A DNA stretch of 64,000 bases from Tribonema minus (Eukaryota > Sar > Xanthophyceae > Tribonematales > Tribonemataceae): NCBI GenBank assembly GCA_017506865.1, contig JAFCMP010000536.1:930001-994000 (forward strand). The letters are read 5' to 3'. Both the position numbers and the translations under genes were made by a program. Under the pieces are notes generated by a model. That model ran no database searches, was not told the DNA's origin, and saw only the letters and a list, made by a program, of their open reading frames with translations. This document shows positions 1,653 to 52,303 of this stretch, piece after piece (position 1 is the first letter of the stretch; the number at the start of each line of letters is the position of its first letter).

Positions 1653-3546
1653 ATGGCCAGCAATCAATTGCATGACGCTGTGAGCGTGGCTTTGAGCCCC
1701 ACCCGACAGTCGCCAACACGAAGATCGAAGGGCTTGCCGTCTGTCAAGTACTTCAAGCCCAGCAGCAAGCGGCGCGCCCTGTTGGAGAGCCAGGCCGCTG
1801 CCTACAGATACAGGCCCTCGGCTCTGGTACTTGATGTCACTGTCGGCAAGACCAGCAGCAGCGATCCGCATGACAAACTCGACACAACACCTCGAATCGT
1901 GGAGTTGCTCGACGTCGCTGCGAGCTCTGTCGTAGTCAAGTCAGCGGTGCCACTGAGCGAGCCCCTGTTTCGACCGTACCCCAGCACCATCACCTTCGAG
2001 GGGTACGATGCCTTCAACGAAGTGGAGCAGGTGCTCTACCTGCGCAACAACGACTCCGTCAACAGGCGCGTCAAGGTCCTGGCGGTGGAATCGCCGTACT
2101 TCACGGTGTCCGGGCCTCGCCGCCCCGGCACCCTCACCCAGCTCTCGCAGAGCAAGATCGCACCGGGGATGGAGGTCTGCTTCGTCGTGACCTTCAGGCC
2201 GCAGGAGATAGAGCCCTACGCGGCGGAGCTGGTGGTGGCCACGGAGCGGGAGAAGTTCATAGTGCCGGTGCGCGCGACGGGGCGGAGCGCCGCGCTGGAC
2301 CTGCCCGACCGCATCGCCTTCTCCGCGCAGCCCGTGAAGGCGACGCGCTCCAAGACGCTCATCTGCAGGAACGTGGGCGCCTGCGAGGCGGCGGTGACGC
2401 TCCTATGCACGACGACGCCGCCGGCGGACGGCGACGCCACGGCGGCGGCGCAGCAGCACCAGCAGCTGCTCGGCGCCGGCGGCTGGGACGACGGTGGCGC
2501 CGCCGAGGCCGAGGCCGCGTTCAGCGTGTACCCGTCGGAGCTCGTGCTGCCCGCGGGCGAGAGCACGACGGTGGAGGTGTCGTTCCGCGGCGCGTGCGCG
2601 CGCGCGTACGGCGGCGAGCTGATCGCCGCCTACGCCGACGGCAGCCGCACGCACACGGCGCTGGCCGGCGCCGCGCGCTGCGCCGACGTCCACCTCTCCG
2701 CGCCCGACCTCGCGCTGGAGCCCACGTACATCTCGCTGTGCTCGCAGCGCAAATTCAAGGTCGTGAACCGCGGCGACGAGCCGGCGCGCTTCGAGTGGTG
2801 CGCGTTCGCCGACGCGGCGGAGGAGGCGGCGGAGCGCGCGCGCCTGCGCGCGGAGCTGCGCCGCATGCAGGCCGCGGAGGAGGCCGTGCTGCTGCGGCAG
2901 CACAACTCGGCGGCGGCGGCAGCGGCGGCGGCGGCGGGCGGTGGAGGCAGCGGCGCGGACGCGGCGGCTGCAGCAGCGGCGGTGCTGGAGTTGGCGACGC
3001 AGGAGGCGGGCGGCGCTGAGCAGGAGCTGCAGGTGGCGCCGTCACACGGGGTTTCAGCGCTCAGGCCCAGTGGCACTAGTGCCCGTCGCCGCAGCGGCGC
3101 TGCCGCCATGTCTGATGACGATAATGGCGGCGGCGGCAGCGGCGGCAGCAGACGCGGCAGCAGCAGCGACGCAGCGCTCGAAAGGCGTGCCAGCGGCGGC
3201 GCGGCGCTGCACAGGCGCGACAGCAGCAGCAGCGGCGACGGCGGCGGCGGCGGCGGTGCCAACGGCGGCAACGACGACGACACCAGCAGCGCGTACGGCG
3301 ACGAGGCGGAATGGGAGGGGGCAGTGCTGCGCGGCGGCGGCAGCGCGCCGCCGTCGCCGGAGCTCAAGGCGGCGCTCGCGGCAGTGCGGCGCAAGTACCG
3401 CCACCTGCGGCGCGCGGTCGACGAGGACGCCATGCTGTTTGCGGACGACGCCTTCGAGCTGCGGCCGCTGCGCGGCGAGGTCTGGGCGAACGCGGAGACG
3501 GAGGTCACGGTGCTGTTCCGGCCGGGCGTCGCGATGGACTACTCAG
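1653..3546 (+). CDS. HYDIN: HYDIN exon 1 (residues 1-631)
   Basis: Carries the conserved N-terminal block: FNEVEQVLYLRNND, SKIAPGMEV, ATEREKFIVPVRATG, LDLPDRIAFS and LEPTYISLCSQRKFKV, all close to animal HYDIN. An insert rich in Ala, Gly, Ser and Asp (about residues 425-570) precedes a return to ASH sequence (EVTVLFRPGVAMDYS). The donor is CAG|GTGTGT, phase 1. Confidence 0.95.
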
Positions 3547-4548
3547 GTGTGTCAACTTTAATATGAGGTTGTTGAGGCGCGCGGTGCCGCCGTCCTCATG
3601 CTCGGGGTCGGCGGCCGTGACTGGCGAGGCGAAGGCGGCGCTGTTCAGGGTTGAGGTTGAAGGTAGGTTTAGGGGTTAGGGTTAGAATTAGAGTCTGCAG
3701 GAGGTGCACAGGGCCTGCGGCTGCTGCATGGGAGGCCGCATTGCTGTTGGTTGTGCTCAGCGTGGCTGAGCGGACTTTGCATGGCGCCAGTTTGTGGCAC
3801 ATGACAGTGCGCCCCCTGTACCATCGTGTTGACCATTGGGGAGTTTTTGCACCCCAAGGCGCCACCAGCCTACGTAAGCGCACCAAGCGCACAAAGTGCG
3901 GTTCCTCAAAAGAAAGGACTGGCTCGTTGTGTGCCCATGTACCCATTTGCCCTGGCCATGTGGATGCAGCGGCAGCCTACGTAAGCGCGCTGAGCGCTCT
4001 AGAGGGCTGACTCATTGTGCCCCTATACCTACCTGCCCTGGCCACATTCATCTCAAGAGGTCTGACTCACTGTGCTCATATACATACCTGCTCAGGCGTC
4101 AGTTTGTGCCAAAGGCATCTTCAAACCCACTGCCATCGTGTTAACCACGGGGGGCTTCTTGCTCCCCAACGCACCGTCAGCCAATGCAAGCACGCCAAAT
4201 ACCTTTCAGAACGGGCTGACTAATTGTCCCCATATACCTGCCTGCCTTGGGTTACAACGTATGCAGCGTGCGCGTACCTGGAGGTCGTCGGGCGCGAGGA
4301 ACGCGCCCCCATCTGGCTCAGCGGCGCGGGCATCGGCCCGCGCATCGAGCTCAGCTACGCGCAGCTCGACATGGGCGACATCTTTCTAGGACTCAGCCGC
4401 GCCTACGACCTCACCATCGTCAACAAGGGCGACATCCCCGCGGACTGGGCGCTGCGGCCGGCGCGCAGCGGCAGCAGCGGCGGCGAAACCGCCAAAACTG
4501 CCGACGGCGGCGAGATGGACGGCGAGATGGACGACGAGTCGTGTGCGC

Positions 4549-4618
<70 letters not shown>

Positions 4619-4753: not shown

Positions 4754-4784
<31 letters not shown>

Positions 4785-7700
4785 GGCGGTGCCGCGGCGG
4801 CGGCGTGCGCGTTCCGCGGTCGCGTCGTCGGCCCGACCTTTGCGCTCGACGCGCGCGAGCTCGACTTCGGCGCAGTGAGCTTTGGTGTCGCGTGCGCGCG
4901 CTCCGCGACGCTGCGCAACACGTCGGAGATCGCCATGGCGTGGCGCGCGCGCGTGCCGCAGGACGGCGCCGCCGGGGGGGGGCGGCGCGCGGAGTTCGCG
5001 GTCGCGCCGGCGGCGGGGACGCTGGCGCCAAGGGACAGTGTTGAAGTTACAGTAGAACTTACCGCGCGCACGCTCAAGGCGTACAGCGCGTACTGCCTCG
5101 CGATCGACGTGGAGGGCGTGGGGGAGGCGCTGCTGGCGGTGCCGATACGCGCCGTGAGCGCGGCGCCGGCGCTGCGGCTGCGCGCCAAGGCGGTGGACTT
5201 TGGCGCGTGCTTCCTGCGCTACCAGGAGCCGCAGGCGCTCGTGATAGAGAACACGTCGCCGGAGCTGACGGGCACATTCAGGTGCGCTCTCGGCTCGGCG
5301 AACTCAGACTTGCGGCGATAGCTTGAAGTGAGTGCGTGTATGGGGGTGTACGCGCAGGCTCGCAGCGTGTTTCCGTTCAGGTGAGCTGTGGTGGACCTGG
5401 GCGTGCACCGATGGCTTGAAACGAGTGCATATTCGAAGCAGATGTGTGGGAAGGCGCGCAACATATTACCGCTCTGGCGGCAACGTTGCGTCAACGCTTG
5501 GAGGCAGTGACTGCGGGCCAGCGCCATCAGTGCTCGGCGGTAGCGCCTGATGGGATTGGCACAACATGGGTGGTGATTGGAACCACATGCAAACTCGGGC
5601 GGCCAAACGAATCTTTTGAAACAGTACAACAACACCAAAGCAGCATGCACGATGCACGCCATTGGAGGTTTGCGCGCTACTGCGCTGCCGCAGTTTTGAC
5701 GCTATCGCCACACGCGGCAGACGCTAGACGGTACGCTCAGCAGTGCCGGGAGCTGCAGCAGCGCTCGACCCGATCGTGCAGCTCACCGGCCGCCTCACAG
5801 CAGCGCTCCCGCCACAACAGCGGCACTTTGCATGTGCAGGTATCAAACCACCGCGTAGCATGTCTCTACACATGCGACGCACGGTCACGACCTCACTGAC
5901 GCATCAACGCGCTCAACCTGCCAACCCTATGCTCAGGGTTTGCCCCCAGGAGACGAGCTGCCTCGGTTCGGCACTCGTGCAGGCCACCCCGGAGGAGGGG
6001 ACGGTGCCCCCCGGGGGGAGCACTGAGGTCACCGTCTGGGTGACGTGCCAGCGCCTGGGTCAGGTGAGCAGCCAAACATGACTGCGGTTGATGAATGAGT
6101 GAAATGAATTAATCGTAAATGGAAAAGGGGTGAGCACTGAGGTCACCGTCTGGGTTACGTGCCAGCGCCTGGGTCAGGTGAGCAGTCTTGGCATGACTGC
6201 AATAAATGAAAGAGTGAAATCAATGAATGAGAATGGGGGTGAGCACTGAGGTCATCCCCACATGGGTGACGTGCTAGCGCCTGGGACGGCGGGCATCTTT
6301 GACATGACTGCAATGGATGAGCAGCTGGGCCCGTCCTGGCACGTACTCTGCACTTCACCTTCTGCCTGTCCTGCGCGCCACACCCACGGCGGCCTGCAAC
6401 CCGCTGAGCCCTGACTCTCTGCTTCCCCTACACTTCAACTTCAACTCCCGCCTCCCCCCTCCCCCCCCCCCCCCCCCCCCCCCCCGCGCCGCAGTTCCGC
6501 CTGCCCATGATGATCTCCGTCGACGGCAGCGTCGAGCCGCCGCTGCAGGCCACGCTGAGCATCACCGGCGTAGGCCCGAACGTCGTCCCCGACCAGGACG
6601 CGCTCGCGTGGGGCGCCACTCCCTGCCTCATCGACGCGCCGCGCGCGGTGACGCTCCTCAACGACTCCAAGATCCCCGCGCCGTTCCGCACGTTCATCCG
6701 CGGCGCGCGCTCGCGCTTCCGCGTGGACGTGCGCGAGGGCGTCCTCGCGCCGCGCGCGTCGGTTACGCTGTGCGTAACCGCGTGCCTCGACGAAGCGTGC
6801 GCGCACGCGGACGAGCTCCACGTCATCGTCGCGGAGGGCGACGCGCGCCGCGTCGCGCTGACCGCGCGCGGCGTCGGCGCGACCGTCTGGTGCGACGACG
6901 ACCTGAGCGTCGTGGACTTTGGCACCGTCTTCACCGCCGGCGCCGGCTGCGCGCGCCGCGTCACCGTAGAGAACAAGGGCCGCCGCCAGCAGTCGCTGCG
7001 CTGGGTCAACGAGACGGCCGAGGCGGCGGCGCTCGCCGCCGCCAAGACCAAGACGTCGCGCCGCGGCGGCGGCGGCGGCGGCGCCAAGCCCGCCGCTGCT
7101 GCAGGCGGCGGCGCCGTTGGCTCCGCAGCAGCGCCGCCGCCGCCGCCGCCGCTGCCGACGTCCGCGCGGACGGCGCTCGCGAATCTCGAGACGCGCCCCG
7201 TGCCGTCCACGTTCACGGTGTCGCCCGCGGAGATCGAGCTGCGGCCGCGCACGGCGGTGACGTTCACGTTCCGCGGCAGCAGCGCGGCGTGCGGCGCCGC
7301 GGAGGAGACGCTCGTGTGCCAGGCGCTGGCGGCAGGCGTCGCGACGGGCGCGCCGTCGGCGGCGGCGGCGGCAGCGGGCGGCGGCGGCGGCAAGGACAAG
7401 GCGCCGCGCGACGTCTTCCGCACGCGCGTGCGCGCGCAGTTCGTGACGCCGCTGCTGCAATTCTCGGCGCCGGCGTTGCGCTTCGCGTACACGCACGCGC
7501 CGCCGCTGCCGCCGGGCGCCGCCGCCGGGTCGAGCGCTGTGGCGGCGGCGGCGGCGGCGTGCCAGGCGCAGCCGTTGACGCTCACCAACGCGGGGCCGCT
7601 GCCGCTGGAGGTGACGCTCCGCACAAGCGCGCCGTTCTCGGTCGACACGTGGGAGCACAGCCTCGCGCCAGGCGCGGCGACGGCGGTGAGCGTGCTCTTC

Positions 7701-10700: not shown

Positions 10701-13111
10701 TGGCGGCGCGGCACGTCGCCGACTTCGGCCACGTCATCTGCGGCGCGACCAAGAAGCGCACGTTCCGCGTCGTCAACACGGGGCGCGCGGGCGCCGTGTC
10801 GTGGGCCTTCGACAAGGCGCTGCTCGCGGGCAGCGGCTTCGCGCTCGAGCCCGACCGCGTCGCGCGCCTCCCCGAGGGCGCCGCCGCGAGCGTCACGGCG
10901 ACGTTCCAGGCGCGCCGCGCCTTCGAGAACGGGCCGCGCGAGGTGGCGCTCCCGATCGCCGTGAAGAACGGCCCCGCGACGCTCCTCGTGCTGCGCGCAT
11001 GCGTCGCGGTGCCCGCCGTCGCCGTCTCCGCAGCGCTGCTGGAGTTCGGCGACGTCGTCGTCGGGCGCAGCTGCACGTCGTGCCTGCAGCTGCACAACCC
11101 GGGGCCCGTGCCCGCGGACTGGGAGCTCAAGGCGCCGCTGAACATCAGCGATGCGCGCGACGAGGCGCGCTTCGAGGTGGCGCCGCGCGGCGGGCGCCTC
11201 GCGCCGGGCGCGCGCGCGAACGTCGCCGTCGAGTTCGTGCCGCTCGAGGGGCAGGTATGTACGGCGCGTATAGCGTTCTTCGACGGCGCAGTAGATGCGC
11301 GGAGAGGAGGCAATGCACCGCGTCGGTAGGCCACGTCGCGAAGCGGGGGGGGGAGGTCTGATTGAATCGTCCGTAGACATGAGAGTGATGAGGTGCACTG
11401 CGCTGACGCACCCGCCGGGCGCGCGCGCGAACGTCGCCGTCGAGCTCGTGTCGCTCGAGGGGCAGGTACGTATGTATATGTGGTCGTCGCGTTCGACGGC
11501 GCGCTGCAGACGCCGCTTGCGGAGAAGGCACCACGTCGCGTCGGTAGGCAGAGCGGCGATCGCCAAGGGGCGCGTCGTGTCGGCGGAATGTGAGGGTGAT
11601 GAGGTGCGCTGCGCTGACAATGCACCTGCGAGACGCGCGCCACCGTCGCCTCCGCGTCCGTGCTGCTCGAGGGGCAGGTGTGCATCGTATGTAAAGTGTG
11701 CTGACGGAAGAAGGAGGGCCAGAGCGCGGACGGAAGCGCAGGTGGCCATCAGAGCGTGGCCCATGCCTGGACGGTCTGCGCAGTGGCTGCGCGAAAGCGC
11801 TTGCTACTGCCGTGTACCAGTCTTGCTCAGCCATCGCGTTCGGGCCGCTCGAGGGGCGAGTCTCGTGAACAGTTGTGATGGCCGCCTGCCGACCGTGTTC
11901 TTAGTCTGGGCGCACTCTCTGCGCGCAAGCGGCATGCGTGGCAAAGCTGCCGCACATTGCCAATATCAGCAAGACTTGTGTGACGTGCCTGCAGAGTCGC
12001 GGCTGGCGGCTGCGTGCTGCACTTGCGCTCATGCACGCAGCATTCTGCACTCATCTCCTCCAATCAGAGCTCACATATCTGGAGCAGTCGCCAGAGTGCC
12101 TCCAATGCGCACGTGCACCGCCTGTCACGCCGCGCTCGCCCCCCCCCCCTCTCACGCTCAACGCGCTCCCGCGCCGCCTCCGCTGCCGCCGCCACGCCCG
12201 CGCGCGCCCCGCAGGCGTACGCGACCAAGCTCCCGCTGCGCGTCGCCAACAGCGCCAAGACGCACATGATCTGCCTGCAGGGCGTCGGCGTGCACCCGCG
12301 CGTCGCCTTCGACCCGCCGCGCGCGCTGCTGGGGCCGGTGCTGCCGGGCGCCCCCTGGGCGCGCGCGATCGTCGCCATGCGCAACGACGGCGCCGTCCCC
12401 ATCGAGGTCTTCTCGCTGGACTTCGACGCGCAGTACGGCGCGGAGGAGCGCGCGCTCGCCGTGGCGCGCGGCTACGACGAGAGGGACGTCCTGCGCGTGC
12501 CGCCGCGGCAGCCGGGAGAGGGGCTGCACCCCTCCATTGCCGCCGCCGCCGCCGCCGCCGCGCCCGCTTCTCCTGCCGCCGCTGCCTCCCCCGCCGCAGC
12601 CGCTGCCGCTGCCGCCCCCACACCTGCTGCGCTGCCCGCAGCCGCCTCGAAGGCTCCGGCGGCTGCGACGGCGGTCGCGGCAGCAGCCTCCATCAATGCT
12701 GCCACCGCCGCCGCAGACGCCGCCGCTGCGCCGCCCGCTGCGCCAGTTGAACTCGAAGACGACGACTGCGCGTGGCTCGTCGCAGACCCGGCGGCGGCGG
12801 CGGCAGCGGCGGCGGCAGCGGCGGGCACCGACTGGGAGAGGACGGCCACCGCGCGGGAGGCGGGACTCGCGTACGACGTGGTCGTGACGGGCCCCGCGCT
12901 GAGCGGCCGCTCCACACTCGCCTACGCGCTTGCAAAGCACCACAAGCTCGTCGCCGCGACGCTCGACGACGTCGTCGCGCAGGCATCGGCGCTGCGCGCG
13001 CCGCTTGGCGCGCGCGTGCGCGCTGCGCTCCACCGCTTCACGCCGCGCGAGGCGGCAGCGTGGGCGGCGGCCGTCGCCGCAGCGGTAGCGGCGGCGGACG
13101 CCGAGCGGCAG

Positions 13112-13143
<32 letters not shown>

Positions 13144-16100: not shown

Positions 16101-19100
16101 TGCAGACACTCATTCCGAAAGCGCTGCCGCGTTGTGCGACTGTCCGCGCAGGCGACGCTGCCTGGTCACGGGCGACTGCTGCGTGCCGGCGATCAACGCC
16201 GACCCCGCCAACGTGTTCATGCGCCGCATAAAGGCGCCGCCTACTGGCGCCGCGGGGGTTGAATCACCCGTGGACCGTCCTGCGACGCTTCAATCTTCAT
16301 TCCGTCACTTAGAAACCGCCGCCGCATGCTGCGACTGCCCGCGCAGGCGACGCTGCTGGTCACGGGCGACTGCTGCGTGCCAGCGATCAACGCCAACCCC
16401 GCCAATGTGTTCATGCGCCGCATCAAGGCGCCGCCTACTGGCGCCGCCGCGCGCCCCGTCAGCAAGCGCTACGTGGCGTCCAAGGGCGCGTACGACTTTG
16501 GGCCGCTGCTGTGCTGGCGGCGCGCGAAGGACAGGTGAGGGGTCGCACTTCAAGTGCTTGATGAAGTTTCTGGTTAGCTGAGGACTGCTATTGAGCTCGT
16601 ATTAGTTGACCGCTCGCAACACCCGCATCGCGCGTCGCAGTACCCGGAGCCCGACGACACAGCTCTCAATGACATGAAATAATAGTACGTTAGAACCTGA
16701 TTCGAACCCCCGGGCCTAACCCTACGCACGATCCTAACCCCTCTTATCGGCAGTGTGAACAGCAGCAACAAGGAAACAATGTGTCCTCCTCGCTCGTCCC
16801 CAGCCCCCGCCGCGCACGCTGCTGAAGCCGCTGGACCCCCCTTCAGACGGCCTGCTCGCACCACGTGGCACCCTCCAACTCCACAACATCATCCCCGATC
16901 CTGCTTCACGCCATACACAATACCATCCCTCACCCCCCCTTCCCCTCTGTGGTGACGCGGCAGGCTGCTGGAGCCGCTGGAGCCCCTCTCAGCCCGCTTG
17001 CAGCACGCACCACCCTTCCATTCCACAACACCTTTCCCCAATCCTGCGCCAAGTCACACTACCATCCCTCGCCCCCCCTCCCCTCTGCGGTGACGCGGCA
17101 GGCTGCTGGAGCCGCTGGAGCCCGAGGCGCGCGCTTCGCTGAGCGCTGACGCGCTCGCCGCGCGCGACGTTGCCGAGGCGCGCCTGCGCGAGCTGACCGA
17201 CGCCAACAGCGACGTCTTCCGGATCTCCAACGCGGGCCGTTACCCCGCGCGTGTGACGTTTGCGTGGCAGGACAAGGCGCCCGCTGCTGCTGCTGCTGCT
17301 GGCGCCGGCGCGCTGCCGACTGCAGGTGGGCAGCGCTCGGTAGAAGGGGAACAGGCCTGAAAGGGTGTGAGGTTTTCGGCAGCGTGTGCAGCACGTTTTG
17401 CATGGCACCGACCAGCAGGGGTAGGCACAAGGCTGCAGCAGAGTACTACTGAGCTGAAAGGCTAGCGTCGGCAAAAACGCGGCTCTGCCCGTAGGCGCAT
17501 TCGCTGAATCTGTGGCTGATGCAGTTATTGCGAGCGCCCGCCGCCGCCGCGGTCACGGTAGCACAGCGGGGGTACAGCATACTGTTGAAGTTGGGGGGGG
17601 GGAAGCACCGCGGGGGTCATGTATCTCATAGGTACATCACCTGATGCAGCAATCACATGCGTGGCGCACGCATTAACTCACCACCCATCGTCGACGCTAC
17701 ACATGCAGTCATAGAGAATGGTGCATTGATACACGCGCGCGCTGGCCGCCGCAGCAGCAGCCGCCACCCGGGCGGGCGGCAGTGGCAGCGCCAGCAGTTT
17801 GCTCCCAGCACGACTGAACCCCAGCCCTTACCTTAACCCCTACCCTTACCCGACCGAACCCCAGCCTGCACCGGCAAGCCCTAATCATGCGCCCTCCCAA
17901 CTGGTGACCCATGCGCTCACACAATAGATCAATCACCACACACGCCATCGCTGCCGCACACATAACTTGAAAATAACAATGCGCAACATGCGCGCCCGCC
18001 CCTGTCACCGCAGCAGCAGCGGCCTCCCTGGCGGCGCCGGCAGCAGCGGCGGCGCCGGCGCCGGCGGCCGCGCTGCCCAAGTCCCGCGGCGCGACGCGCG
18101 CATCCGTGGCGGTGGCGCCGCCGCCCGCCGCACCGCAGGAGCCGGTGTTCTACGTGTCGCCCGAGACTCTCGAGCTGAGGGAGGGGGAGACGCGCGAGGT
18201 GCGCGTGTGGGCGTTCCCGACGCAGGCGCGCGCGTACGAGGCGCAGCTGCTCGCGCACGTTCAGGTGAGCGCTGCTGCCGCCTGCTGCCGCGTCTTCAAG
18301 CAGTTGAAGTAGTGGGTGGTGCGGGACGCGCGGGGGGGGGGCGTCGTGCGCGCGCCCCCCCGCTCGCGTGGCTTCCGGGAGGAGTTTGCCCGCCTCAGTG
18401 TGTGTGTACAGGTCGTGTAAGCATCTAGCACCTGTCTCGACAAGGGAGTTTCTGTGTCACTTCCTGACTGACGCAGCTGCTGCCCGGGGTACAGGATCGA
18501 GGCCAGCTGTGGCAGTTGCAGGCTTACCTGTCCCACCTCACAGGCTGGCAGCTGCGACTACACAATGCATACCCCCCTGTCTGAGTGGCCGTGTCACGAG
18601 CTCGTCGTCCCATACGAGCGGAAACAAATTGTTCACTCACTCACTCACTCCTGACCCTGACTCGTGCAGGACAACCCCACGCCGGTGACGCTCCCCATCT
18701 GCTGCTGCGGCGCCGCGGCCAGCGCGAGGGTCGAGGGTCCGTGGAGCGATGCTGCAAAGCAACACGTTGGCGGGGACGCCGCCACAACAGGTCACCTGAG
18801 CGCTGACGCCGCGGAATACACCGCAGCGTCCGCGGCGGCCAGCACGCTGGGCGGAGGGATGCCGTCAGGTGCGCAACGCTGTGACGGACATGGTGCTCGA
18901 TGTGATACTTCAACTATGTGCTACTTTCAATCAGCACTTGAATGATCGTACGCGAACGAGGTGGTAGTGACCAGTGACGGCGCGTGCCAGTGGCGAGTCT
19001 CACTTCCCGTGCAAATGCAATTCGCACCGCTGAGCCCCTGATGTCACCCGTTCGGTCACCGCAACGCGCGTCGCAGGATCGGCGAGCGCCAAGGGCGGCA

Positions 19101-25100: not shown

Positions 25101-28100
25101 ACGACTTCGCGTGGGAGGCGCTCGGCGCGCCGTCGCCCGCATGGCGCTGCCTCACGCCGCGCGGCGCGATCCTCGCGGGGCGGCGCGGCGAGATGGCGTT
25201 CGAGTTCACGCCGGAGGCCGGCGACGCGGGCGGCGGCGGCGGCGCTGCCGAGGCGTTCATGCGCTTCGCCGTGCCAGCGCACGGCGTCTCGGAGCTGTTC
25301 CTGTTCGTGGGGCACGTCGCGGAGCCGCGCGTGTACCTCGACCGCGCGCGCATCGACTGCGGTGTCCTCATGCTCGGCGCCGCGCACCGCGCGACGTTCG
25401 CCGTCGTCAACGACGAGGCGCTGCCGTACAGCTTCGCGTTCGACAGGGGCGCGCTGCTGGCAGGCGCGCTGGGCGCGGACGACGATGATGACGGCGACGG
25501 TGGCCACGGGGGGGAGGGGGGGGGCGGCGCTGCGGAGGGGGGGAGGGCGCGGGGGAAGGCGCGGCGGCGGCGCCGCCCCGTCCTGGAGGTGTCGCCGATG
25601 ACGGCGCTGCTGCCGCCGCACGGGCGCGTGCAGGTGCGCGAGTGTTTCGGTGCTTGCAGATATGTAAAAGGCCGTGCGGTTGTGCATTTGGGCGTGGCCG
25701 CAGAGGACAGTGCTATGCTGTAGTGCTAGCAGCGCGCTGCCCCACGCGCGAGCTGCAGCTAGAGAGCGCCGATTGTAAGAGCAGTGTTTGACTGCAACCT
25801 TATCAAACGTCATAAAGTCTCTGGACTGGCGCATAAGCTGTACAAAACCAGTTCACCACAGCTGAAACTCTCAGCCGCATGCCACGCAGATCCTCACATC
25901 GCCATGAGGTGGACGACGTACTGGTGCGTAAGCTTCACCGTGTCAGTTCATCAAAGCTGAAAGTGTACTCCGCCGCGCGCCGCGCAGGTCGAGGTGACGT
26001 TCTGCCCGCGCGAGGAGCGCCTCCACAACTTCAACCTCACGTGTGCCGTGCGCAAGAAGCCCGCCAAGCTCAACATCAACATCAAGGGCGAGGGCTTCGG
26101 CGTGCACGCGCGCCTCCTGCTCGAGGGCGAGGAGAGCGTCACCGGCGGCGGTACTTCAACTTTGGCATTGCCCGGGGGCGTGGACGCAGGGGGCTGCGTG
26201 GGCGCGCGCGGCGGCTACGAGCTGTCGCCGCTGCCGAACTTCAACACTATCGACTTCGGCCGCGTGTACATCAACGACCGCGCCCGGCGCAAGGTCACCG
26301 TCGTCAACCCTGGCAAGTTCAATGTGGATTACGCGCTGTTCTACCGAGCGTCAACTTCAAGCGGCGACGCCGCAGCGGCCAGGGCCGGCGGCGGCGGCGG
26401 CGGCGGCCTCTACGACAGCGCCGGTGGCGGCAACGGTATGCCCTCGGCGCTCTCCGTGACCGCCACCACCGTCAGCGCCATGAGCGGCGCAGCGGCGGCT
26501 GTGCCGGCCGCGGGGACGCGCAGCAGCGGCGGCGGCGCGTTCAGCCTCAACGGCACCGTCCGCCGCGGCGAGCGCCTGGAGCTCGCGCTCGAGTTCGCGC
26601 CGCTCTCCGAGGCAGCGCTCGACGGCGGCGGCGAGCTTGTGTGCGCGCTGGCCATGTCGGCGCGCCACACGTACGTGCTGCGCCTCGCCGGGCGCGGCGC
26701 GCACCCCGGCCTGCGCTTCTCCTTCCTGCGCCACGACTTCGGGCCGTGCTTCGTGACGCCGCCGGGCGAGCCGCCGGCGGCCGAGACGGCGGTGCTGCGC
26801 GTCGCGAACGCGGACGCCGCCGCGCCGCTGTCGCTGGACTGCGACTTTGCGGGGCACAGGTGAGGAGGGGGGGTCCAGCGCCACTGCCGCCGCTGTCGCT
26901 GGTGGTGGTGGTGGTGGTGCTGCTGCTGCTGCTGCTGGCCCTGCTGCTGCTGCTGCTGCCGTCGTGAGGAAAGCGGCAGAGCGTCGCTGCCACCGTCGCC
27001 GCCGCCACTGCTCGTGTTGATGGTTGCAGTGATGGTGGGGCTGCTGCTGATGCTGGTGGTGCCACTGCTGCCGTCGTGATAAACACTTTCCTGGGTACGC
27101 ATCGACAAGCCGCGTGCATCCAGAAGCGCTGCACTCGCACCCACAAGCCGCGCTCACACTCCGAATCATGCACCCTACGGCATCAGAAAAGTGCATGCAC
27201 CCTACGGCATCAGAAAAGTGCTGGCTAGCGTATGCGTGCGCACGTGCTTGCGCTGCACATCGTATACCTGCCGCCAAGCGACCGCTATGCATATACGCAA
27301 ACTCGAGCTCACGCTGCCCGCTGCCTGCCCGCCGTCGCCGTCGCCGCTGCTGCCGCCGCCGCCGCCGCCGCCGCAGGTGCCTGCGCGTCGAGTGCGCGCC
27401 CGCCGTCATCGCGCCCGGCGCGGAGGTCGACATTCCCATCCACTTTGCGCCGCGTGAGGCCAAGGGCTATGCGTTCTCCGTGCCGTTCCTCGTGAACGGC
27501 AGCTACACGGTCAAGGTGGTGCTGCTGGGGGAGGGGTGCCCCGCGCGCCTCGAGCTCGCCAACCCCTCGCAGCGCCACGTCTCCTTCGGCATGGTGCCTG
27601 CGGGTGAGCGCTGCTGCTGTGCCGACTTCAAATAATTTTATGGAGTCTTGAAGCCTGTGTCGCTGCTGCCTGGCCCCTGAGCCTCTCACGCCTGATGCCT
27701 CTCGCGTCTGTGAGCGCCGCGAAAAGCTGAGTTGTGGCTTCGAGCTTGCCGACCTGGCGCAGCGCCACGTCTCCTTTGGCATGGTGCCCGCGGGTGAGCG
27801 GTGCCGCTGTGCTAGCCCTGCATCTAGGTCTTGCTGTCTGTGTCGCTACCCTTATCCGCAGTCCCGGGTCTCGAAGTCGATGCAGCTGCTGCCTGATCCG
27901 CAGTCCCGCGTCTCAAAGTCCATGCAGCTGCTGCCTGGCCCGCTGATGCCTTCACCAACGGGCCTTTCAGCGTCTCCGTCCATGCGCCGCACTCCCTAAC
28001 CCTAGCCCTAATCCTAACTCAAACCCTATCCCTAATTCTCAGGCGCGACTGTCACCAAGGTGGTGCGCGTTGTGAACCGCAGCAAGCGCGCCATGGCGCT

Positions 28101-31100
28101 GCAGCTCACGCAGGAGGGCGAGGACACCGGCGGCGGCGGCGCCGGCAGCGCCGGCGCCGGCGCGCTTGCCGCACGCAGCGTCACCTTCTCCCCCGCCGCG
28201 GCGCTCACGCTGGCGCCGCGGCAGGGGGTGAACGTCGAGCTCACCTTCGCGCCGCGCGCGCGCCTCGCGGCGTTCTCCGAGACGCTGCTCGTGCGCGCGG
28301 GCGCGGCGGCGGCGCCGCGCGCGCTGTGCGCCGTGAGCGGGCAGAGCGTCGGCATGGCGGTGCGGCTCGCGCAGAACGCGCTGCCGTTTGGCACGGTGTG
28401 CGCGGGCGCCGCCAAGACGCTGCGCCTCGCGCTCGAGAACGAGGGCGACGACCCCGTGCGCTTCGCGTGGGACGCCGCGACGCTGGGGCCGCACTTCACC
28501 GTCGCGCCCATGGACGGCCTCGCCGCGCCGCTGCGGAGCGTCACCTTTGACGTGACGTTTCGCCCACGCGCGCCGCACCCCGACGTGCGCCAGGAGGGCA
28601 TCACGCTCGTGGCGGCGAGCGCGGTCGCGGCGGCGGGCGCGGCGCCGACGCGGCTCGCGCTCGCGTGCACAGGTGCGTTGGCGGGGGTCACGACCCCGTG
28701 ATGAGCGCCGCGTGCGGATCCGGATCCGCCGTGCTGCCGTCATGCTGGCTGCCGAGAGCTTGCTGTGACGCGCAACGCTGCTGACGGAGCCGCCGTGCGC
28801 GCTGCTGCCGCGACGAGTGCTCCGGCGGATGGCATCGCTCAGCAGCCGCCGCGCCGCTGCGCGCGGTGCCGATGTGGTGAAGTGCTCCACACAAGCACGG
28901 AGGAATGGCACACGCGACGGCGTCTGTTGTCGGTGGCCTTTGTCTAGACGCATTGCGCGTGTCGGACCAGTGACAATGTTCAGCATAGTCTGGGCATGAT
29001 GACATGACAGTGCTCATATAACCAAGTTCAGCCGTCTCCGACAGCACACCCATGGCCTTGACAGGCCCGTTGACAGAGAGGGTTGCCGTTCCTCTGGCCT
29101 GCAACTTCAACAGGCCTACTACACCCTAGCCCTATTTCCTGACTCTATCCTTTATCGTGATCGCTCGGCAGGCATATCCGTCGAGCAGCCGGAGGAGAGC
29201 GTCATCAAGCTCGCCTTCGACGCGCGCGTGCGCCAGACGCAGACCCAGTCCGTCACGCTCACCAACCCCACCGACAGGCCGTGGTACATCGAGCCCGTCG
29301 TCACGGGCGACCACTGGAGTGGTGACGCTCAGGTGTCGGTGCCCGCTAAGGGCTCCGCGCAGTACGGCATCACGTTCTGCCCCCTCGCAATGACCGCCGC
29401 GGTCGGCGCCGGCGCCGCCGCCGGTGCCGCCACCGGCGCCGCTGCTGCTGCCGCGGCCGCCGGCGCTGCTGCTGCCGGCGCTGCCGCGGCGGCAGGCGGC
29501 GGCGCTGCTGCAGCGGGCGGCGGCGCGGCTGAGCGTCCGCAAGTGCACCGCGGCGGCCTGTTCTTCCCGCTCCCCGACGGGAATGGCATCATGTACGCGA
29601 TGACGGGCACTGCAGGGCCGCCGCTGGCGGAGGGGCCGCCCATTGAACTGGTGCGTCACCCGATGATACTTCAAGTATTGCACAGTGACTGCGCTGTGGC
29701 GGCTGCACAATCTCTGAGCTTTGGTAGCCCATGTGTGAGGGTCATCTGAGGGAAGGGCGCGGGGTGGGGATCCAACTCGGGTCAGCACGAGGGCAAAATG
29801 CGCGTCAAGGTTGCCAGTAGGCACGACAAAGGCGCACGTCAGCTACGGCGTCCTCCCCACCGCTACCCAGACCAGATGACACCGGCAGAAGCGCGGGCGG
29901 TCACGCGCTGCACTGGGCAGCGGCGGCTGCGGCGACGCCTCTGGCTGCAGCGATGAGCCACCCTCGTGCTCTTGCACACGCCTCCCCATCACCACAGCGC
30001 TCAGCACACTGCCTCACCGCGCACATTACGCCACCTCACATTCGCGCCGCTGCCTCCGCCTCTGCGCCGCGCGCCGCCGCCGCCGCAGGCCACGCCCGCC
30101 AAGACGCCGCTGTCGTTCGCCGTGCCCGTGCGCAACTGGCTGCGGCGGCCGCAGCGCTTCGACGCGGCGGTGCGGCTCGGCGACGGCGCGCATGCGTCGA
30201 CGCAGCTCAAGGGCGCCAGCACGGTGGAGGTGCCGCCGCTCGGCGCGAAGCAGTACGCGCTGCGCTTCGTCGCGTACAAGGAGGGGGTCACCACTGCTCA
30301 GGTACCTCGCCCTAACCCTAACCTCAACCCTAACCTTAATCCTAGCCCACCACTGCTCGGGTAATACGCGCTAACCCTAACCCTAACCATAACCTACCAT
30401 GGGTCCGTGCTGCCACTGCATCTTGCTTCATCGACGGTACTTTGCGGCACGCCAGGTGTGCATTTGCGCGGTCAGCCGCAGAACAGCCGTACCACGATTC
30501 CCTCCTTCCTTTTGAACAAGGCAGGGGGGGCCGGTTTGTTGCAGGCCTTGCTGTTCCCATGAGGTCTCGCCGTGACGCCACCGGGCAGCAGCGTATGTTG
30601 TGCAGTGCGCGCCTTGCGACGCAGCGCATTGACGTACATGACCCCAATGCGCCTCCTCAGCCGACGTCAGCGCACGCGCGCAGGGACATCGGGAGCAGCA
30701 GCACCGCTGCCAACCCTGCTCTGCTCACGCACTGGCAGCGCATCGTCGTTTCGTCTGATCCCCGCCGCGCTCTCACTCAATCGTCTGCCGCCAAGCCTCA
30801 CCGCACCGCGCTAATGCCCCCCCCCCCCCCCCCCCCCCCCCTCTCCCCACCCTCCCCACATCTGCGCGCAGGTGACGTTCACGTGCCCGCACACCGGCGA
30901 GTACCAGTTCCACGACCTCGTCATCACCGCGGGGGAGCCGGAGGTGCAGGAGACGATCGCCATGGAGGCGAGCGTGCGCAACGCGGCGCGCCACGTCATC
31001 ACCATCGACAACCCGCTGCCGCCGAGCGCTGCCATCACGCTCGGGAGCGTCACCGCGCCAGCTGCTGCGGCCGCAAAGGGTGAGTGCACCCCCCACATGG

Positions 31101-35808: not shown

Positions 35809-35950
35809 ATTCCTGTTGAAAGTGGGGTGGCTCGGGGTCTTCAGTGGTCCACCTTGGTTAAGCCCCCCGCCCCGGAAATATTCCTGTTGAAAGTGGGTGG
35901 CTCGGGGTCTTCAGTGGTCCACTGGTTAAGCCCCCCCCCCCCTCCGGGGG
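35809..35950 (+). repeat. 71-bp tandem duplication
   Basis: ATTCCTGTTGAAAGTGGG... followed by GGCTCGGGGTCTTCAGTGG occurs at 35809 and 35880, nearly identical. The second copy ends in a C run and CCTCCGGGGGCGGGG. Confidence 0.9.
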
Positions 35951-41702: not shown

Positions 41703-42566
41703 ATGCACACCATGGCGGAAACACCAGTATTGCGCATAGTGACACCGGAGGAGGTTCCCATGCTGGAGCTGGACCCCGTGGACCCTACGGCCCTCATACA
41801 AGCCAAAGAGATCGTCGACGATGTGCGGAAGACCGGCGAGGCTGGCCTTCGCAAGCACGCACTGCGTCTTGGCGATATTCCTGACGCAACATCGAAGTAT
41901 GTCCTCGACAAGGCTGAAATGAAGGCTGCCTTCGACTCTCTGCCAGAGGACGAGCAGGCACTGCTGCTGCGCACCCGGGACAGGATCCAGGCCTTCGCGC
42001 AGTGCCAGCTCGACTCCGTCCAGAGCATGGAAACATCCATCCCCGGAGGCAGGGCGGGCCACACGCTCAGCCCCATGGCCGTAGCTGGCTGCTATGCCCC
42101 GGGGGGACGGTATCCCCTCCCCTCCTCCGTCCTCATGACGGCGGTGACGGCGCGCACAGCGGGCGTCAAAACGGTCGTGGTGGCATCCCCCCGCCCCGCC
42201 CCCGTCACCGTCGCCGCCGCCCACGTCGCCGGCGCGGACCTGCTCCTCTGCATCGGCGGCGCGCAGGGCATCGCAGCGCTGGCCTTCGGCACGCCTTGCG
42301 TGCCTGCGTGCGACATCATCGTCGGCCCGGGCAACAAGTGGGTCACGGCGGCCAAGTCCCTCGTGCAGGGGCGATGCGCCATCGACATGCTGGCGGGGCC
42401 CTCGGAGGTGCTGGCGATAGCGGACGGCAGCGCGGACGCGGATGTGCTGGCGGCGGACATGCTGGCGCAGGCGGAGCACGACACGGACGCGCGGCCGATC
42501 CTGGTGACGCCCGACGCGGCGCTCGCTCACCGCGTGAACGCGCGCATAGCGGCGCGCCTCGCCGAG
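41703..42566 (+). CDS. hisD: HDH exon 1
   Basis: Residues 1-288, from MHTMAETPVLRIVTPEEV to NARIAARLAE; holds the NAD-binding core and the first zinc ligands. Donor GCCGAG|GTGAGCGCTG, phase 0. Confidence 0.95.
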
Positions 42567-45500
42567 GTGAGCGCTGCCACACCTTTTATCTCCATTTTAA
42601 GATTTCCTGTATACCTATTGTACTTCGAAGTATAGTATCCACGACACGGACGCGCGGCCGATCCTGGTGACGCCCGACGCGCGGCGCTTGCGGGCCGCGT
42701 GAACGCCCGCATAGCGGCGCGCCTCGCTGAGGTGAGCGCTGCCATGCGTTTTGTTTTCATCTTGAGATGTTCCGCATATCGTATAGGATTACAATATTTC
42801 AGGATCGTATAATACGCTGTATACAGTATCGATGTGAGCACTGCCATGCGGTTTCAGGTTACAGCATATTGTATAGGATTACAATATTCCAGTATCGTTC
42901 ATACATTGCATACATTATCATACAATATTTATTGATTTAAATGCTTGATGCGTTAGAAGCTGCGAGCATCTTGAAAGCATTTTGGGCTGCAGAGATCATG
43001 AAGGTTGCCGCGTACAAGGTGGACCTGTTGCACCGGCAGTATCGACCCATACGCCTCAGCTTAGCAGACAGTCCGCTTGCCTCCAAATTCGGAGCCCATA
43101 CTCAAATTTGCCAGAGAAGGTCAGCAAAGTGGCCTGTGGCAGTGGTGCCTGGCGCTGATCTTGCTACACTTAGTGGTCTTGTTAAAGCATATTATCAAGC
43201 GACCATGGTTATGGTGGAAGACGCTTGCGGCCAGCCACCCCGTGTCACCTGGAGCTCTGCGATCTTTTGATTCGTTTCTATTCAAGTGCATCGTTAAAGT
43301 GTGCTGCAAGTGAGGGTGCACCTCGGCATGTTGTAGTTGCCATAATGGATTTCTCGGTCGTGGTGATGCGCAGTGCTGCATTCGTTGACGCTACCTCAAA
43401 CTTGAAGTGTTGCCATGAAGAACATCCTGTATACAAACGCCGCCGCTTTTGGAAGCAACCTGGAACTTGACATCGTCACTACACCAACAGCAGTGCTCCA
43501 AAGCATTTGTACCCCTGAGCGTGCAGCACACGCACCCGAGTGAATAGAGCGACCAACTCAACTACGTATGGTGATGTCGATCTGAGCCAGCAGATCACGT
43601 GGATCACCTACCTCAACAAGGTAGCGCACTCATCGCTTCCGTGCTGACCTAAGCATTGTTGGCGTTGTTCAGTCTTGAAGCATTGCCGTTCATCAGCACA
43701 GCGCTTTATTGTACTTCAGAAGTACGCAGCTGTTCATAGCATCTTTGAAGTACTTGCGCGTCGAGGTGTACATGTAGTTATAAATGGGTACAAGTAGTAC
43801 ATCTGCTCGTACATCTCAGCCAATACGACCACGTCAGTCATGAGGCACCACAACAGCAGGAGCCCGCTGCTGCGGTGCGTGACACAGAATGCACACGTTT
43901 TGTGGACGCCTGCAGCGTAACAGTGCTTAGGTCGCCCAGGTTCTGAGGCACTGCAAAACTTCAACTTACACTTGAAGCATACGCCCTTGCGTCCACTCAT
44001 GAGCGCGTCAGGCCACTATCTGCCCGGCCGTGCGTTAAGGTAATGTGGAGTGAAGTATGAGTTGAAGTATGATCAACTTACAAGTAGGCAGCGGTTGCAG
44101 CGTCCTTCTCTGATGCTGCCCATCGATGCTGTGCTGCTCATCATTGCAACGCCAACAGTATGTATGTATACCGACGGCACACTTCCGCACACACGCCACC
44201 TAACGGGCCTATAAGAGCTGTGGTCAGCGCATGCATGTCCATGTCATGTAAGTGTCCCATTAACTGTCATGTAACTGTTGGCACCCCTGTAACTGTACCG
44301 GTGATGATGACTAAGCGCGACGCAGCGCCACCCCTTTTCTTTCATGTCACGCGATGACTGTACCGGTGATGATGGAAGCGCGACGCAGCGCCACCCCTTT
44401 TCTTTCATGTCACGCGATGGCCACTGTATGAAGTGCCATGGAGGTGGCTCCGGTGTGCTGGACACGAGCGTGTTGGCCACTGCTTGCCCTTGAGATTCCC
44501 ACATGACAAAGCGTACTCATGTACCACCTCAATTGCATTTTTTTCGAGCTTCACTTGCAACTTTTGCTTGTGTGAACGCGACCTGTCACACATATTCTCG
44601 CGCACAGTAGGCATTGAGACGCATCATTATGTAGCTCCGACGTACGCGACCGCAACCTGACATGTAATGAATAATCTCAACTTCAACTGGAAGTACATCC
44701 ATCTGTGCTTGAGCAGCGCTGCGGCGGTGGACTCTCTGTTGATGCGTACTGCGATTCCATGTCCAACTGCAACTTCAACTGTACGACTGCTGCCGGTGCG
44801 CGCTCCACCTGTCGCAGCTGCCCACGCGCGACACGGCGGCGGAGGCGTGCAAGAAGGGCTTCATCGTGGTGTGCCCGGACATGGACAGCGCCATTGCTGT
44901 GTCCGACAGCATCGCGCCGGAGCACCTGGAGATACAGACGGAGAACGCGCAGGAGGTGGCGGACAAGTGAGTCACTGGCGGAGTTGAAGTGCGGTGCAGA
45001 AGCGCACGCAATACGCACGCTGCAACCGCTTCTGCGTATTCACCGGACTTGCAGCGGGCGGCTGATGCTGCGGTGTCGCCAGTGCTGCTTTGCACGATAA
45101 GTTGGCCAAACTTGAAGTAAGTTGTAGCATCCGCCAGACATGTGCTGCAGTCGCTTTATATTATATGCTGAGCTGTGTACAATGGCGATTGATGCCTTCA
45201 ATGTTGAAGCATGTGCCTCCATGGTGCTTGCTACGGCTATTGATTGGAGTTTAAGTTACACTGCGTCAGAATTAAGTTACACTGCGTCAGAGGTATCGCA
45301 ATGGTGCCATGCTTCGCAGTTCACTGGTTGTTGCAGCAGGTATGTATATCGCAGCACGCATGTACATCACTACTGTGATTATAGGTTGAGGCGCTTAGAT
45401 GTCGGCACACTCGACCTTCTGGGCAGAATGCGTCGCAATCACCCGTCATCTGCAGTATGCAATCCATGATCTCAATGATTGTTGTAAAAGTTAGGCTCAT

Positions 45501-47825: not shown

Positions 47826-48384
47826 TCATCGTGCCTGTGAGGCGTCTCCGCTGTGCTCGGCGATGAGCGGTGTGACGAGGGCGTCCAGGGGGTCCATCTC
47901 CCTCCGCGGCAGCAGCTCAAACTCCAGCACGAAGAATATGAAGTGCTGCGCACGCGCCGGGGGACGTAACATTGAAGTTGAAGTAAGATGTGAGGAGCAT
48001 CAATGGGCGATGAGCGGTGTGACAAGGGCGTCCAAGGGGTCCATCTCCCTCCGCGGCAGCAGCTCAAACTCCAGCACGAAGAATATGAAGTGCTGCGCAC
48101 GCGCCGGGGGACGTAACATTGGAGTTGAAGTAAGATGTGAGGAGCATCAATGGGCAATGCGGTGTGACGAGGGCGTCCAGGGGGTCCATCTCCCTCCGCG
48201 GCAGCAACTCAAACTCCAGCACAAAGAATATGAAGTGCTGCGCACGCGCCGGGGGACGTAACACTGAAGTTGAAGTAAGATGTGAGGAACATCAATGGGC
48301 GATGAGCGGTGTGACGAGGGCGGCCAGGGGCTCCATCTCCCTCCGCGGCAGCAGCTCAAACTCCAGCACAAAGAAAATGAAGTG
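47826..48384 (-). repeat. Four tandem versions of the MOB last exon with acceptor
   Basis: Each unit (about 146 bp) has an acceptor GCGCAG followed by HFIFFVLEFELLPRREM. Exon starts are 48384, 48237, 48092 and 47945. Versions 1 and 3 end LVTPLIAH-stop (stops near 48292 and 48000), where the unit joins intron sequence. Version 2 has a short deletion and leaves the frame. Version 4 has the fuller end LIAEHSGDASQAR-stop (47826) and is probably the original. The spacer carries TTGAAGTTGAAGTAAGATGTG (plus strand). Confidence 0.93.
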
Positions 48385-51300: not shown

Positions 51301-52303
51301 CTTGTCCAAGCTCCTTTCCGCCATTAGGCATTAGTGCCACAAGAAAGTGGCAACGCCGCACACCATGCCCCCGTGAACGCCCCTTGGTTGTCATATTGGC
51401 CGCTGGTTGGCATCGCCTTCCCCCCAGATGCCGCTTCAAAATCATCACACTTCAACAAGTGCCACTTCAATGCTGATGGACCGCCCTATGCTCGATTGAG
51501 AGGCTCTGCTGCAGCAGCCTCGCCAGCGTCGCCACCACCGTCATCTTGCCCCCCCCCCCCCCCCCCCCCGTGAATGCCCCTCAGCAAAGCTGCCGATTCA
51601 GATGTGAGCAGCTACATAGGCCCCCCTCCTCCCTTGCAGATCCAGTTGTATGAGCAGCTAGCCCCCCCCCGTCCCTCCCCCGCCCCGCGAATGAATATTT
51701 TTGTGTCAAGGCTCATGCACAGAACATAGAAAACTTCAGATCCGCATGCACAGGGGGGCATTTACTCAGGCAATTACAGTACATCATCAAGCAAAGCGGG
51801 GTGCGCAAGTGCCATTTGTGTTTCTGTTTTGCTGCGCTTGCTCACAAGACATGGTGCTGCGCGAGCAGCACAACAGCTTGCGTTCTCCATCTGCACGAGG
51901 CTGAATTTAATGTGCTTTTCCTCAGCTGCGCGCTGACTTTGATATTTTGATGCGAAAGCAATGGAGCCGCGGGTACAACAATATACACTGATTGATGTGG
52001 CACTCACTGTTGACAGAGAGCCACTCGTTGAGGGACTCCGAAGGCGGCAGCTGCACCGCCAGCCTCATATCGCCACTGTGCATTGCAGGAGAAGAGTCAA
52101 GCAGTCCACCATGAGCGAGCAGCAACGCCAAACGAGACCATCACCATCTCGCAATATCAGATGGTCCCAAACACCCACCTGCCCAGGGTTGTTCTTGAGT
52201 AGCTGTGCAGCTGCTCATGCTTGGAGCCCTCCTTGTGTCCTTTTACTGGCTTGAACGTCTTCTTGTTGTTGGAATTGAACCTGGCAGAGAGGCTGCCAAA
52301 CAT
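47826..52303 (-). CDS. MOB-family kinase activator (5 exons; repeated last exon)
   Basis: MOB proteins bind and activate NDR/LATS AGC kinases (mitotic exit, Hippo). Minus-strand exons: 52303-52179, 52075-52008, 51021-50798, 49031-48870, then a last exon with four tandem versions. With the first version (48384-48292) the phases agree and give 223 aa; MOB1 is about 216. Sequence: MFGSLSARFNSNNKKTFKP, HEQLHSYSRTTLG|SGDMRLAVQLP, LNEWLSVNTVDFFNEVSLLYG, KCSAPQYVDFVMTWVENQ, IFKRLFRVFAIIYCSHF, AKHLNTSFK|HFIFFVLEFELLPRRE. These follow MOB1 throughout. The C-x4-C zinc motif (EFCTxxxCPVM in MOB1) is replaced by DDAERFGRPGEGFPPG, and one zinc His is Ile, so only one of four ligands remains. Subfamily is unassigned. 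Confidence 0.93.
48870..49031 (-). CDS. MOB exon 4
   Basis: Encodes IFPTSADAAYPKEFKKTVQN, IFKRLFRVFAIIYCSHFETI and EQLGAAKHLNTSFK, the MOB helical core. Acceptor TACCACAG and donor TTCAAG|GTCAGT, phase 0. Confidence 0.95.
49032..49780 (-). other. MOB intron 3, distal part
   Basis: About 750 bp between exon 4 and the echo array. CTAACCCTAACCCTAACCC units lie at 49097-49115. Near 49680-49750 there may be one more eroded echo (GCACTTGAAGTGCACTCACTGC). Confidence 0.55.
49781..50765 (-). repeat. Array of about eight donor-side echoes of MOB exon 3
   Basis: On the minus strand each unit (about 110-130 bp) reads KCSAPQYVDFVMTWVENQINNEE-like coding (shown here only in outline) followed by GAG|GTGAGC and a spacer with ACTTCAAGTTGAAGTGGTGCA. 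The donors sit near 50614, 50505, 50382, 50231, 50120, 50008, 49895 and 49790 (plus coordinates), after the true donor at 50797. Copies nearest exon 3 are the most alike and divergence grows with distance; a short fragment lies at about 50701-50765. Confidence 0.92.
50798..51021 (-). CDS. MOB exon 3
   Basis: Encodes VDFFNEVSLLYGIVADD, GFPPGFEYLWVPDGKAAGG and KCSAPQYVDFVMTWVENQ. Acceptor GCGCGCAG|CC (phase 1, completing Thr of VNT) and donor GAG|GTGAGC. A run of 26 or more C (minus strand, about 51103-51129) lies about 80 bases upstream of the acceptor. Confidence 0.94.
52008..52075 (-). CDS. MOB exon 2
   Basis: 68 bp encoding GDMRLAVQLPPSESLNEWLS then VN, matching MOB1 GNLRQAVMLPEGEDLNEW. 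Acceptor GCACAG|T and donor AACA|GTGAGT. Confidence 0.93.
52179..52303 (-). CDS. MOB exon 1
   Basis: ATG at 52303; encodes MFGSLSARFNSNNKKTFKPV, then KGHKEGSKHEQLHSYSRTTL. It matches the MOB1 start (FKPKKxxPEGSHQYELLKHAEATLGSG). Donor GGGCAG|GTGGGT, phase 2. Confidence 0.93.

What the first reader, a model, noticed from the sequence alone, without database searches (positions are those of the whole stretch)
1653..52303. Exon-edge echoes: introns repeatedly contain tandem copies of their own exon border and splice site
At about a dozen boundaries in three unrelated genes the exon end, the splice site and the adjoining intron are tandemly repeated inside the intron. Donor side: HYDIN exons 3 (6018-6330), 6 (11192-11880), 17 (27551-27810) and 20 (30289-30392); HDH exon 1 (42478-42930); MOB exon 3 (49781-50797). 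Acceptor side: HYDIN exons 2, 8, 9 and 16; HDH exon 3; MOB exon 5. Periods range from 59 to 212 bp. Tandem duplication spanning splice sites is a proposed route to new introns; here it looks like a continuing, genome-wide mode of intron growth that also plants decoy splice sites. The gradient in MOB (near copies similar, far ones eroded) suggests repeated events.
Basis: partly seen in the sequence, partly recalled or inferred. Interest (0 to 1): 0.88.

Follow-up and report, generated by a model that had tools for sequence, protein, structure and literature searches.

The report
Introns grown from copied exon edges
In the yellow-green alga Tribonema minus a number of introns contain decaying tandem copies of the exon end beside them, splice site included, which points to introns lengthening by local DNA duplication that often takes an exon edge along and leaves false splice sites behind.

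Summary
The window is from Tribonema minus (Xanthophyceae). In 264 kb (window plus scattered stretches) 23 of 155 donor-side and 20 of 159 acceptor-side exon edges have a copy in their own intron. One gene (L009) has echoes at 11 of 12 edges and a weak one at the twelfth; several paralogues resemble it. Proteins of assembled-transcript type fit splicing at the outermost sites. Inner copies keep GT/AG at about the rate expected from neutral decay. Arrays touch exon edges more often than random placement predicts in that family (31 of 36 against 15.3) and in the window (9 of 13 against 5.7), but not significantly in the rest of the sample (17 of 29 against 13.6). Best reading: intron growth by local tandem duplication that carries exon edges along, with an edge excess in some genes that I cannot fully explain. 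A genome-wide splice-site-directed mode is not established.

The parts
6013..6320 (+). HYDIN-like gene, exon 3 donor echo: exon end (to 6063) + GTGAGC + intron, about 2.7 copies, period 114
11202..11702 (+). HYDIN-like gene, exon 6 donor echo (exon end 11254, GGGGCAG|GTATGT), about 3 copies plus a remnant near 11850, period 211
16110..16447 (+). HYDIN-like gene, exon 8 acceptor echo: upstream copy of CGCGCAG plus about 100 bp of exon, period 195
16814..17123 (+). HYDIN-like gene, exon 9 acceptor echo (exon start 17102), period 138-146
27547..27812 (+). HYDIN-like gene, exon 17 donor echo (exon end 27603, GCGG|GTGAGC), period 190
30289..30395 (+). HYDIN-like gene, exon 20 donor: weak echo, 13 exonic bases, rest telomere-like repeat, period 59
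42477..42919 (+). Histidinol dehydrogenase exon 1 donor echo (exon end 42566), period 163, followed by a 90-bp intronic repeat
   Evidence: exon model equals annotated protein P0001
49792..50871 (-). MOB exon 3 donor echo: nine copies of exon end ...INNEE|GTGAGC, period about 110, probably nested repeats
   Evidence: splicing at outermost donor fits protein P0129
47859..48437 (-). MOB last exon (47829-47945) acceptor echo: three further copies of acceptor + exon, period 147, about 92% alike
   Evidence: outermost acceptor fits P0129

Best explanation
Introns of T. minus lengthen by local tandem duplication of DNA segments (median period 135 bp in the 78 arrays scored). When a duplicated segment contains an exon edge, the intron gains an extra exon end with its splice site. 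The gene survives because the outermost donor and acceptor still splice. The inner copies then decay as ordinary intron, and further in-register and nested duplication turns the intron into [donor copies]n[acceptor copies]m. Shown here: the arrays, their decay, different sets in paralogues, and proteins that fit use of the outermost sites. Inferred: the DNA-level duplication step (slippage, unequal exchange or template switching) and why edges are over-represented. Likely contributors to the bias are that duplications inside exons are purged, that founder introns were short relative to the unit, and that the constrained exon copy stays recognisable and can seed new copies. A residual excess in one gene family is not explained by the parts of this that I could test.
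For: 437 repeat segments against 0 in a shuffled set. Exon-edge probes found in their own intron: 23 of 155 donors and 20 of 159 acceptors; the rate falls to about 2-7% for probes 60 bp or more inside the exon, while intron probes repeat at 13-20%. Donors and acceptors behave alike. Inner dinucleotides decay about neutrally: GT intact in 49 of 62 against 47.5 expected, AG in 35 of 41 against 33.0. Echoes in L009 match their own exon far better than the paralogues' exons; those of L024 and L025 match both about equally. The MOB paralogue on C224 has echoes at a different edge and lacks the echo-filled intron. P0129 (231 of 232 residues as my MOB model) and P0121 (227 of 230 over exons 1-4 of L009) fit splicing at outermost sites. 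Introns holding arrays have median length 855 (n 55) against 368 without (n 166), though longer introns also offer more room for arrays.
Against: Random placement with the family's introns shortened by all visible arrays still predicts 20.0 of 36 edge arrays against 31 seen, so short founder introns alone do not suffice. Of 28 start or stop edges 1 gave a hit, and that one is a misread acceptor, so tolerance outside coding sequence alone may not suffice either. Most junctions in the random sample come from a home-made gene finder. No RNA reads were seen.
Confidence: 0.6

Rival explanations
1. Duplication is directed to exon-intron borders: something about splice junctions (co-transcriptional splicing, polymerase pausing, base-composition step, positioned nucleosomes) breaks or re-copies DNA there.
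For: Family: 31 of 36 scored arrays at edges against 15.3 expected, P below 5e-6, and still P = 1.5e-5 if edge arrays are given doubled odds of being seen; introns of 800 bp or more (all groups) 30 of 43 against 13.5; arrays with best identity 0.94 or more outside the window 8 of 11 against 4.3. Seven BLAST array ends outside window and L009 lie within -10 to +12 bp of a junction against 1.4 expected (not repeated on the diagonal scan, where some of these ends moved by up to about 55 bp). 27 of 28 start/stop edges lack echoes.
Against: Random sample without the family 17 of 29 against 13.6, P = 0.09; with doubled visibility odds the window gives P = 0.18 and the random sample with L009 0.06. 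Donor and acceptor rates are the same, which argues against a factor specific to one splice site. Intron probes repeat as often as exon edges.
Confidence: 0.2
2. Plain random tandem duplication with no edge preference; the reader noticed the striking cases.
For: Repeats are abundant, also in stretches called intergenic; the non-family, non-window sample is near random expectation (17 of 29 against 13.6); position-level coverage of junctions (17 of 142 donors, 11 of 148 acceptors) is close to intron interior, 9.3%.
Against: Family and window exceed it; the random sample including L009 is 27 of 39 against 17.6, P = 3e-4.
Confidence: 0.12
3. The copies are functional: alternative exons or decoy sites kept by selection. 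Two of the three extra MOB last-exon copies encode nearly the same C-terminus with their own stop.
For: MOB last-exon copies are about 92% alike; two of three extra copies end in an own stop, the third is shifted in frame. The deposited T. minus protein P0122 contains two segments identical to echo copies of L025 (4055-4120 and 6141-6230).
Against: Splice dinucleotides decay at about the neutral rate; P0129 and P0121 fit outermost sites; P0122 may be mis-annotated.
Confidence: 0.04
4. New introns made by tandem duplication of an exon segment with AGGT (the Rogers model).
For: MOB intron 3 is absent from the C224 paralogue; some family members match across intron sites in one stretch.
Against: The expected arrangement (downstream-exon copy in the 5' half, upstream-exon copy in the 3' half) is rare: 6 and 7 of 171 introns, against 24 and 20 next to their own exon; units contain intron sequence, so the intron was there first.
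Confidence: 0.03
5. Assembly artefact or a dispersed transposon-like element (introner).
For: Many tandem repeats, some on small contigs.
Against: Copies diverged by up to about 25%; echoes apparently older than the L024/L025 split; two array queries hit only themselves in the genome.
Confidence: 0.01

Closest known systems
[quoted passage not shown] Drosophila PMC2891723, potato PMC4974935)
   Same: Tandem duplication touching splice sites inside genes
   Different: There it creates an intron or exon; here existing introns are enlarged by copies of their own exon edge, at about one edge in seven in the sample, and the duplicates seem not to be used
Introners (PMC9860276)
   Same: Rapid remodelling of introns, also in algae
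   Different: Introners are dispersed element families; here copies are local, and the two arrays tested occur once
Direct repeats near intron borders (Rogers and Bendich 2025, PMC11782384)
   Same: Direct repeats close to splice junctions
   Different: Those are 4-30 bp, read as insertion marks (abstract); here units are mostly about 60-220 bp in arrays of up to nine
Intronic minisatellites / internal tandem repeats
   Same: Head-to-tail arrays with in-register and nested expansion
   Different: The first unit contains an exon end under selection and an active splice site

Membership tests
Tandem (minisatellite-like) array | head-to-tail adjacent copies of one unit | tested here: met
Rogers-type intron gain | new intron starts with a copy of the downstream exon and ends with a copy of the upstream exon | tested here: not met
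   upstream-exon copy in 3' half 7 of 171, downstream-exon copy in 5' half 6 of 171, against 24 and 20 next to their own exon
Rogers-type intron gain | intron absent in close relatives | tested here: inconclusive
   MOB intron 3 absent in C224 paralogue, but gain cannot be told from loss
Introner | many dispersed similar copies in introns of other genes | tested here: not met
   only two arrays tried; each found only itself
Intron expansion by local duplication | orthologous intron without, or with different, copies | tested here: inconclusive
   P0121 reads into the orthologous intron; part of it matches L009 about 360 bp further in (E = 8e-7, 61% of 23 residues; protein level only, and two higher-scoring alignments rest mainly on exon-derived residues)
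Intron expansion by local duplication | outermost splice sites used in mature RNA | tested here: inconclusive
   P0129 and P0121 (names of assembled-transcript type) and annotated P0001 agree with outermost-site models, but no RNA reads were seen and P0122 includes inner copies

The most novel reading that the evidence does not exclude
In this lineage exon-intron borders themselves are duplication hot spots on both intron sides: the constrained exon edge acts as a permanent template that is re-copied into the intron again and again, so introns grow inward from both ends as [donor copies]n[acceptor copies]m and orthologous introns are rewritten between close relatives.
Probability: 0.22. Interest if true: 0.85.

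Novelty: new variant of a known kind. Interest (0 to 1): 0.62.

Why it matters
Intron lengthening is usually put down to transposons (my own knowledge). Here much intron DNA in one gene can be traced to copies of its own exon edges (96% and 98% of two introns of L009 lie in arrays), so intron growth, tolerance of decoy splice sites and outermost-site choice by the spliceosome can be studied directly. It also has a practical side: a deposited protein, P0122, includes echo copies as coding sequence.

Tried and rejected
Rejected: an introner or transposon, AGGT intron gain, an assembly artefact, selection on decoy sites. A first guess at the organism (green alga or haptophyte) fell when HDH proved identical to a T. 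minus protein on a contig of the same length, 1,886,451. A first coverage test suggested no edge effect, but it counts every copy of an array inside introns and only one at a junction, so array-level tests replaced it. BLAST-based arrays gave more or less excess depending on the overlap rule (46 arrays, 21 against 12.0; 47 arrays, 29 against 17.6, without L009 19 of 37 against 14.4; non-window 30 of 36 against 18.0, without L009 20 of 26 against 14.2). BLAST missed at least one array (44313-44419), so I rely with my own diagonal scan. Rows: 95 arrays, of which 7 intergenic, 2 exonic and 8 that break the placement rule (exons inside the array) were left out before the count; the latter include clear echoes such as window 11202-11702. 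Some predicted exons inside arrays were relabelled intron before the counts. Exon ends of L028 exons 3 and 4 were set from tblastn and may lie about 20-30 bp too far. L013 (402 bases) was dropped from the sample. Of 13 contigs with matches to the family protein I looked at 7 (C210, C154, C58, C35, C268, C457, C290). Pfam gave no accepted match for the family protein; a homologue, P0124, carries PF07995, so glucose/sorbosone dehydrogenase-like is a lead, not a result. The species behind P0121 and P0129 is not given in the listing; a second Tribonema is my guess. P0128 (three LLVDMTAD in a row) looks like an included acceptor echo by eye; tblastn did not show the short repeats separately.
Full report
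WHAT THE WINDOW IS. The window is G000:C533:930001-994000 of a 158 Mb genome. My four-exon model of histidinol dehydrogenase is identical over 424 residues to a protein named Tribonema minus on a contig of 1,886,451 bases, the length of C533. T. minus is a xanthophyte. The long gene at about 1.6-33 kb carries HYDIN/CFAP65-type Ig domains. The minus-strand gene at 47.8-52.3 kb is a MOB protein (PF03637 in its homologues).

THE OBSERVATION. Self-comparison finds the arrays. Eight of the twelve named boundaries are clear copies of exon end plus splice site plus intron, one is weak, two are intron repeats that end short of the acceptor, and one is simple repeat. MOB exon 3 is the best: nine copies of the exon end with donor. 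They do not form a simple gradient: the third echo is 60 of 60 identical to the exon edge, the two nearer ones 58 of 60 and 50 of 55, as nested duplication would give.

HOW COMMON. I sampled 16 stretches by contig number (one of 402 bases dropped) and three 20-kb stretches, 200 kb in all, and trained a small gene finder on them and the window. It recovers the four HDH exon spans, but adds false exons in echoes and elsewhere and misplaces at least one junction by 10 bp (HYDIN exon 17), so junctions in the sample are approximate. A 60-bp exon-edge probe has a match in its own intron above the 99% level of mismatched introns in 23 of 155 donor and 20 of 159 acceptor cases. The rate falls with distance into the exon to about 2-7% at 60 bp or more, while 60-bp intron probes repeat at 13-20%. 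Start and stop edges: 1 of 28, and that one is a misread acceptor; in the C224 MOB gene, outside this sample, the stop region is duplicated.

IS IT MORE THAN RANDOM PLACEMENT. Each array was moved at random within its own intron, allowing it to run into an exon by up to one unit, and scored as edge if it reached within 10 bp of an exon (78 of 95 arrays scored). Random sample without the family: 17 of 29 against 13.6 (P = 0.09). Including L009: 27 of 39 against 17.6 (P = 3e-4). Window: 9 of 13 against 5.7 (P = 0.03; the window was chosen because of the finding). Family of L009: 31 of 36 against 15.3 (P below 5e-6). Exon copies are under selection, so edge arrays may stay visible longer. Giving them doubled odds leaves P = 1.5e-5 in the family, but 0.18 in the window, 0.06 in the random sample with L009 and 0.59 without. 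Shortening introns by all visible arrays leaves 31 against 20.0 in the family (P below 1e-4) and 9 against 6.1 in the window (P = 0.04), and no signal in the random remainder (17 against 14.6, P = 0.19). So the excess is real in some genes, not shown for the genome.

THE SHOWCASE FAMILY. L009 (C210) has echoes at 11 of 12 edges of the six modelled exons and a weak one at the twelfth. Visible arrays fill 96% and 98% of introns 3 and 5. Of the paralogues fetched because of homology alone, L024, L025, L026, L028 and L029 have edge echoes too; L027 and L030 show no arrays. L009 echoes score much higher against L009 exons than against L024/L025 exons. The L024 and L025 echoes score about equally against both, some better against the sister's exon. 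So some echoes look older than the L024/L025 split, and those of L009 formed or were renewed on their own branch. Exon identities are 64-81% (L009 to the others) and 84-91% (L024 to L025).

WHICH COPY IS USED. P0129, listed from EukProt under an assembled-transcript type of name, differs in 1 of 232 residues from my MOB model, which uses the outermost donor of exon 3 and the outermost acceptor of the last exon. P0121, of the same type, matches exons 1-4 of L009 with 3 differences in 230 and then reads into intron 4. Part of that intron piece resembles L009 sequence about 360 bp into the intron, at an old echo (E = 8e-7, 61% of 23 residues); two alignments with better E-values (1e-13 and 9e-12) lie at the exon edge itself and at the first echo and rest mainly on exon-derived residues. 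By eye the intron residues next to the L009 exon fit less well. This hints that T. minus has placed new copies between the exon and the old intron start; it is one protein-level comparison. The deposited T. minus protein P0122, on a contig of C154's length, contains two segments identical to echo copies of L025 (4055-4120 and 6141-6230), so either inner copies are sometimes used or the annotation was misled; I think the latter.

FATE OF THE DECOYS. In 109 echo copies at 49 edges the exon part is 87.5% (donor) and 89.7% (acceptor) identical; GT is intact in 49 of 62 and AG in 35 of 41 copies that cover the site, against 47.5 and 33.0 expected from that identity. There is no sign of upkeep or purging. 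GC makes up about 16% of donors called by the finder, which may be model noise.

MECHANISM. Best supported is local tandem duplication with later in-register and nested amplification, tolerated because the outermost sites still splice. Donor and acceptor sides behave alike. Not settled is whether the edge excess reflects short founder introns, visibility and re-seeding from the constrained exon copy, or a hot spot at exon borders.

LITERATURE. Among the rows listed by my searches (one search listed 25 of 46 papers) I saw no paper describing such exon-edge arrays in Tribonema or elsewhere; most subscription papers are not held. Seen: passages of PMC4974935 and PMC9860276, abstracts of PMC11782384 and PMC2891723. 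The other listings were read as titles and abstract openings only.

One search was added. It showed that two, not three, of the extra MOB last-exon copies end in their own stop, and it limited the annotation claim to P0122.

Noticed in passing
window 15550-15681 (also 27993-28035, 30300-30395, about 46390): Interstitial TTAGGG array (22 units, 90%) and scattered CCCTAA telomere-like runs, in regions called intron
   Followed up: no
window 47829-48437: Four tandem copies of the last MOB exon; two of the three extra ones have an own in-frame stop (the third is frame-shifted), so potential alternative last exons with nearly the same C-terminus
   Followed up: partly
L031 (C224:323201-325900): MOB paralogue without intron 3, with two echoes of its exon end in the next intron and a duplicated stop region
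   Followed up: partly
L025 4055-4120 and 6141-6230; proteins P0122, P0128: Deposited protein P0122 includes echo copies as coding sequence; P0128 perhaps too (by eye)
   Followed up: partly
L007 1127-1659: 265-bp tandem duplication, 99.6% alike, across a predicted donor: probably very recent
   Followed up: no
L004 1-938: Array in which exon and intron together seem multiplied (exon edges of both sides inside the repeat)
   Followed up: no
window 60393-60653 and 35808-35941: Young tandem duplications (130 bp, 98%; 70 bp, 93%) in regions called intergenic
   Followed up: no
G000 C193, C343, C549: Matches to the family protein with the same score on three contigs: possible duplicated contigs or haplotypes
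   Followed up: no
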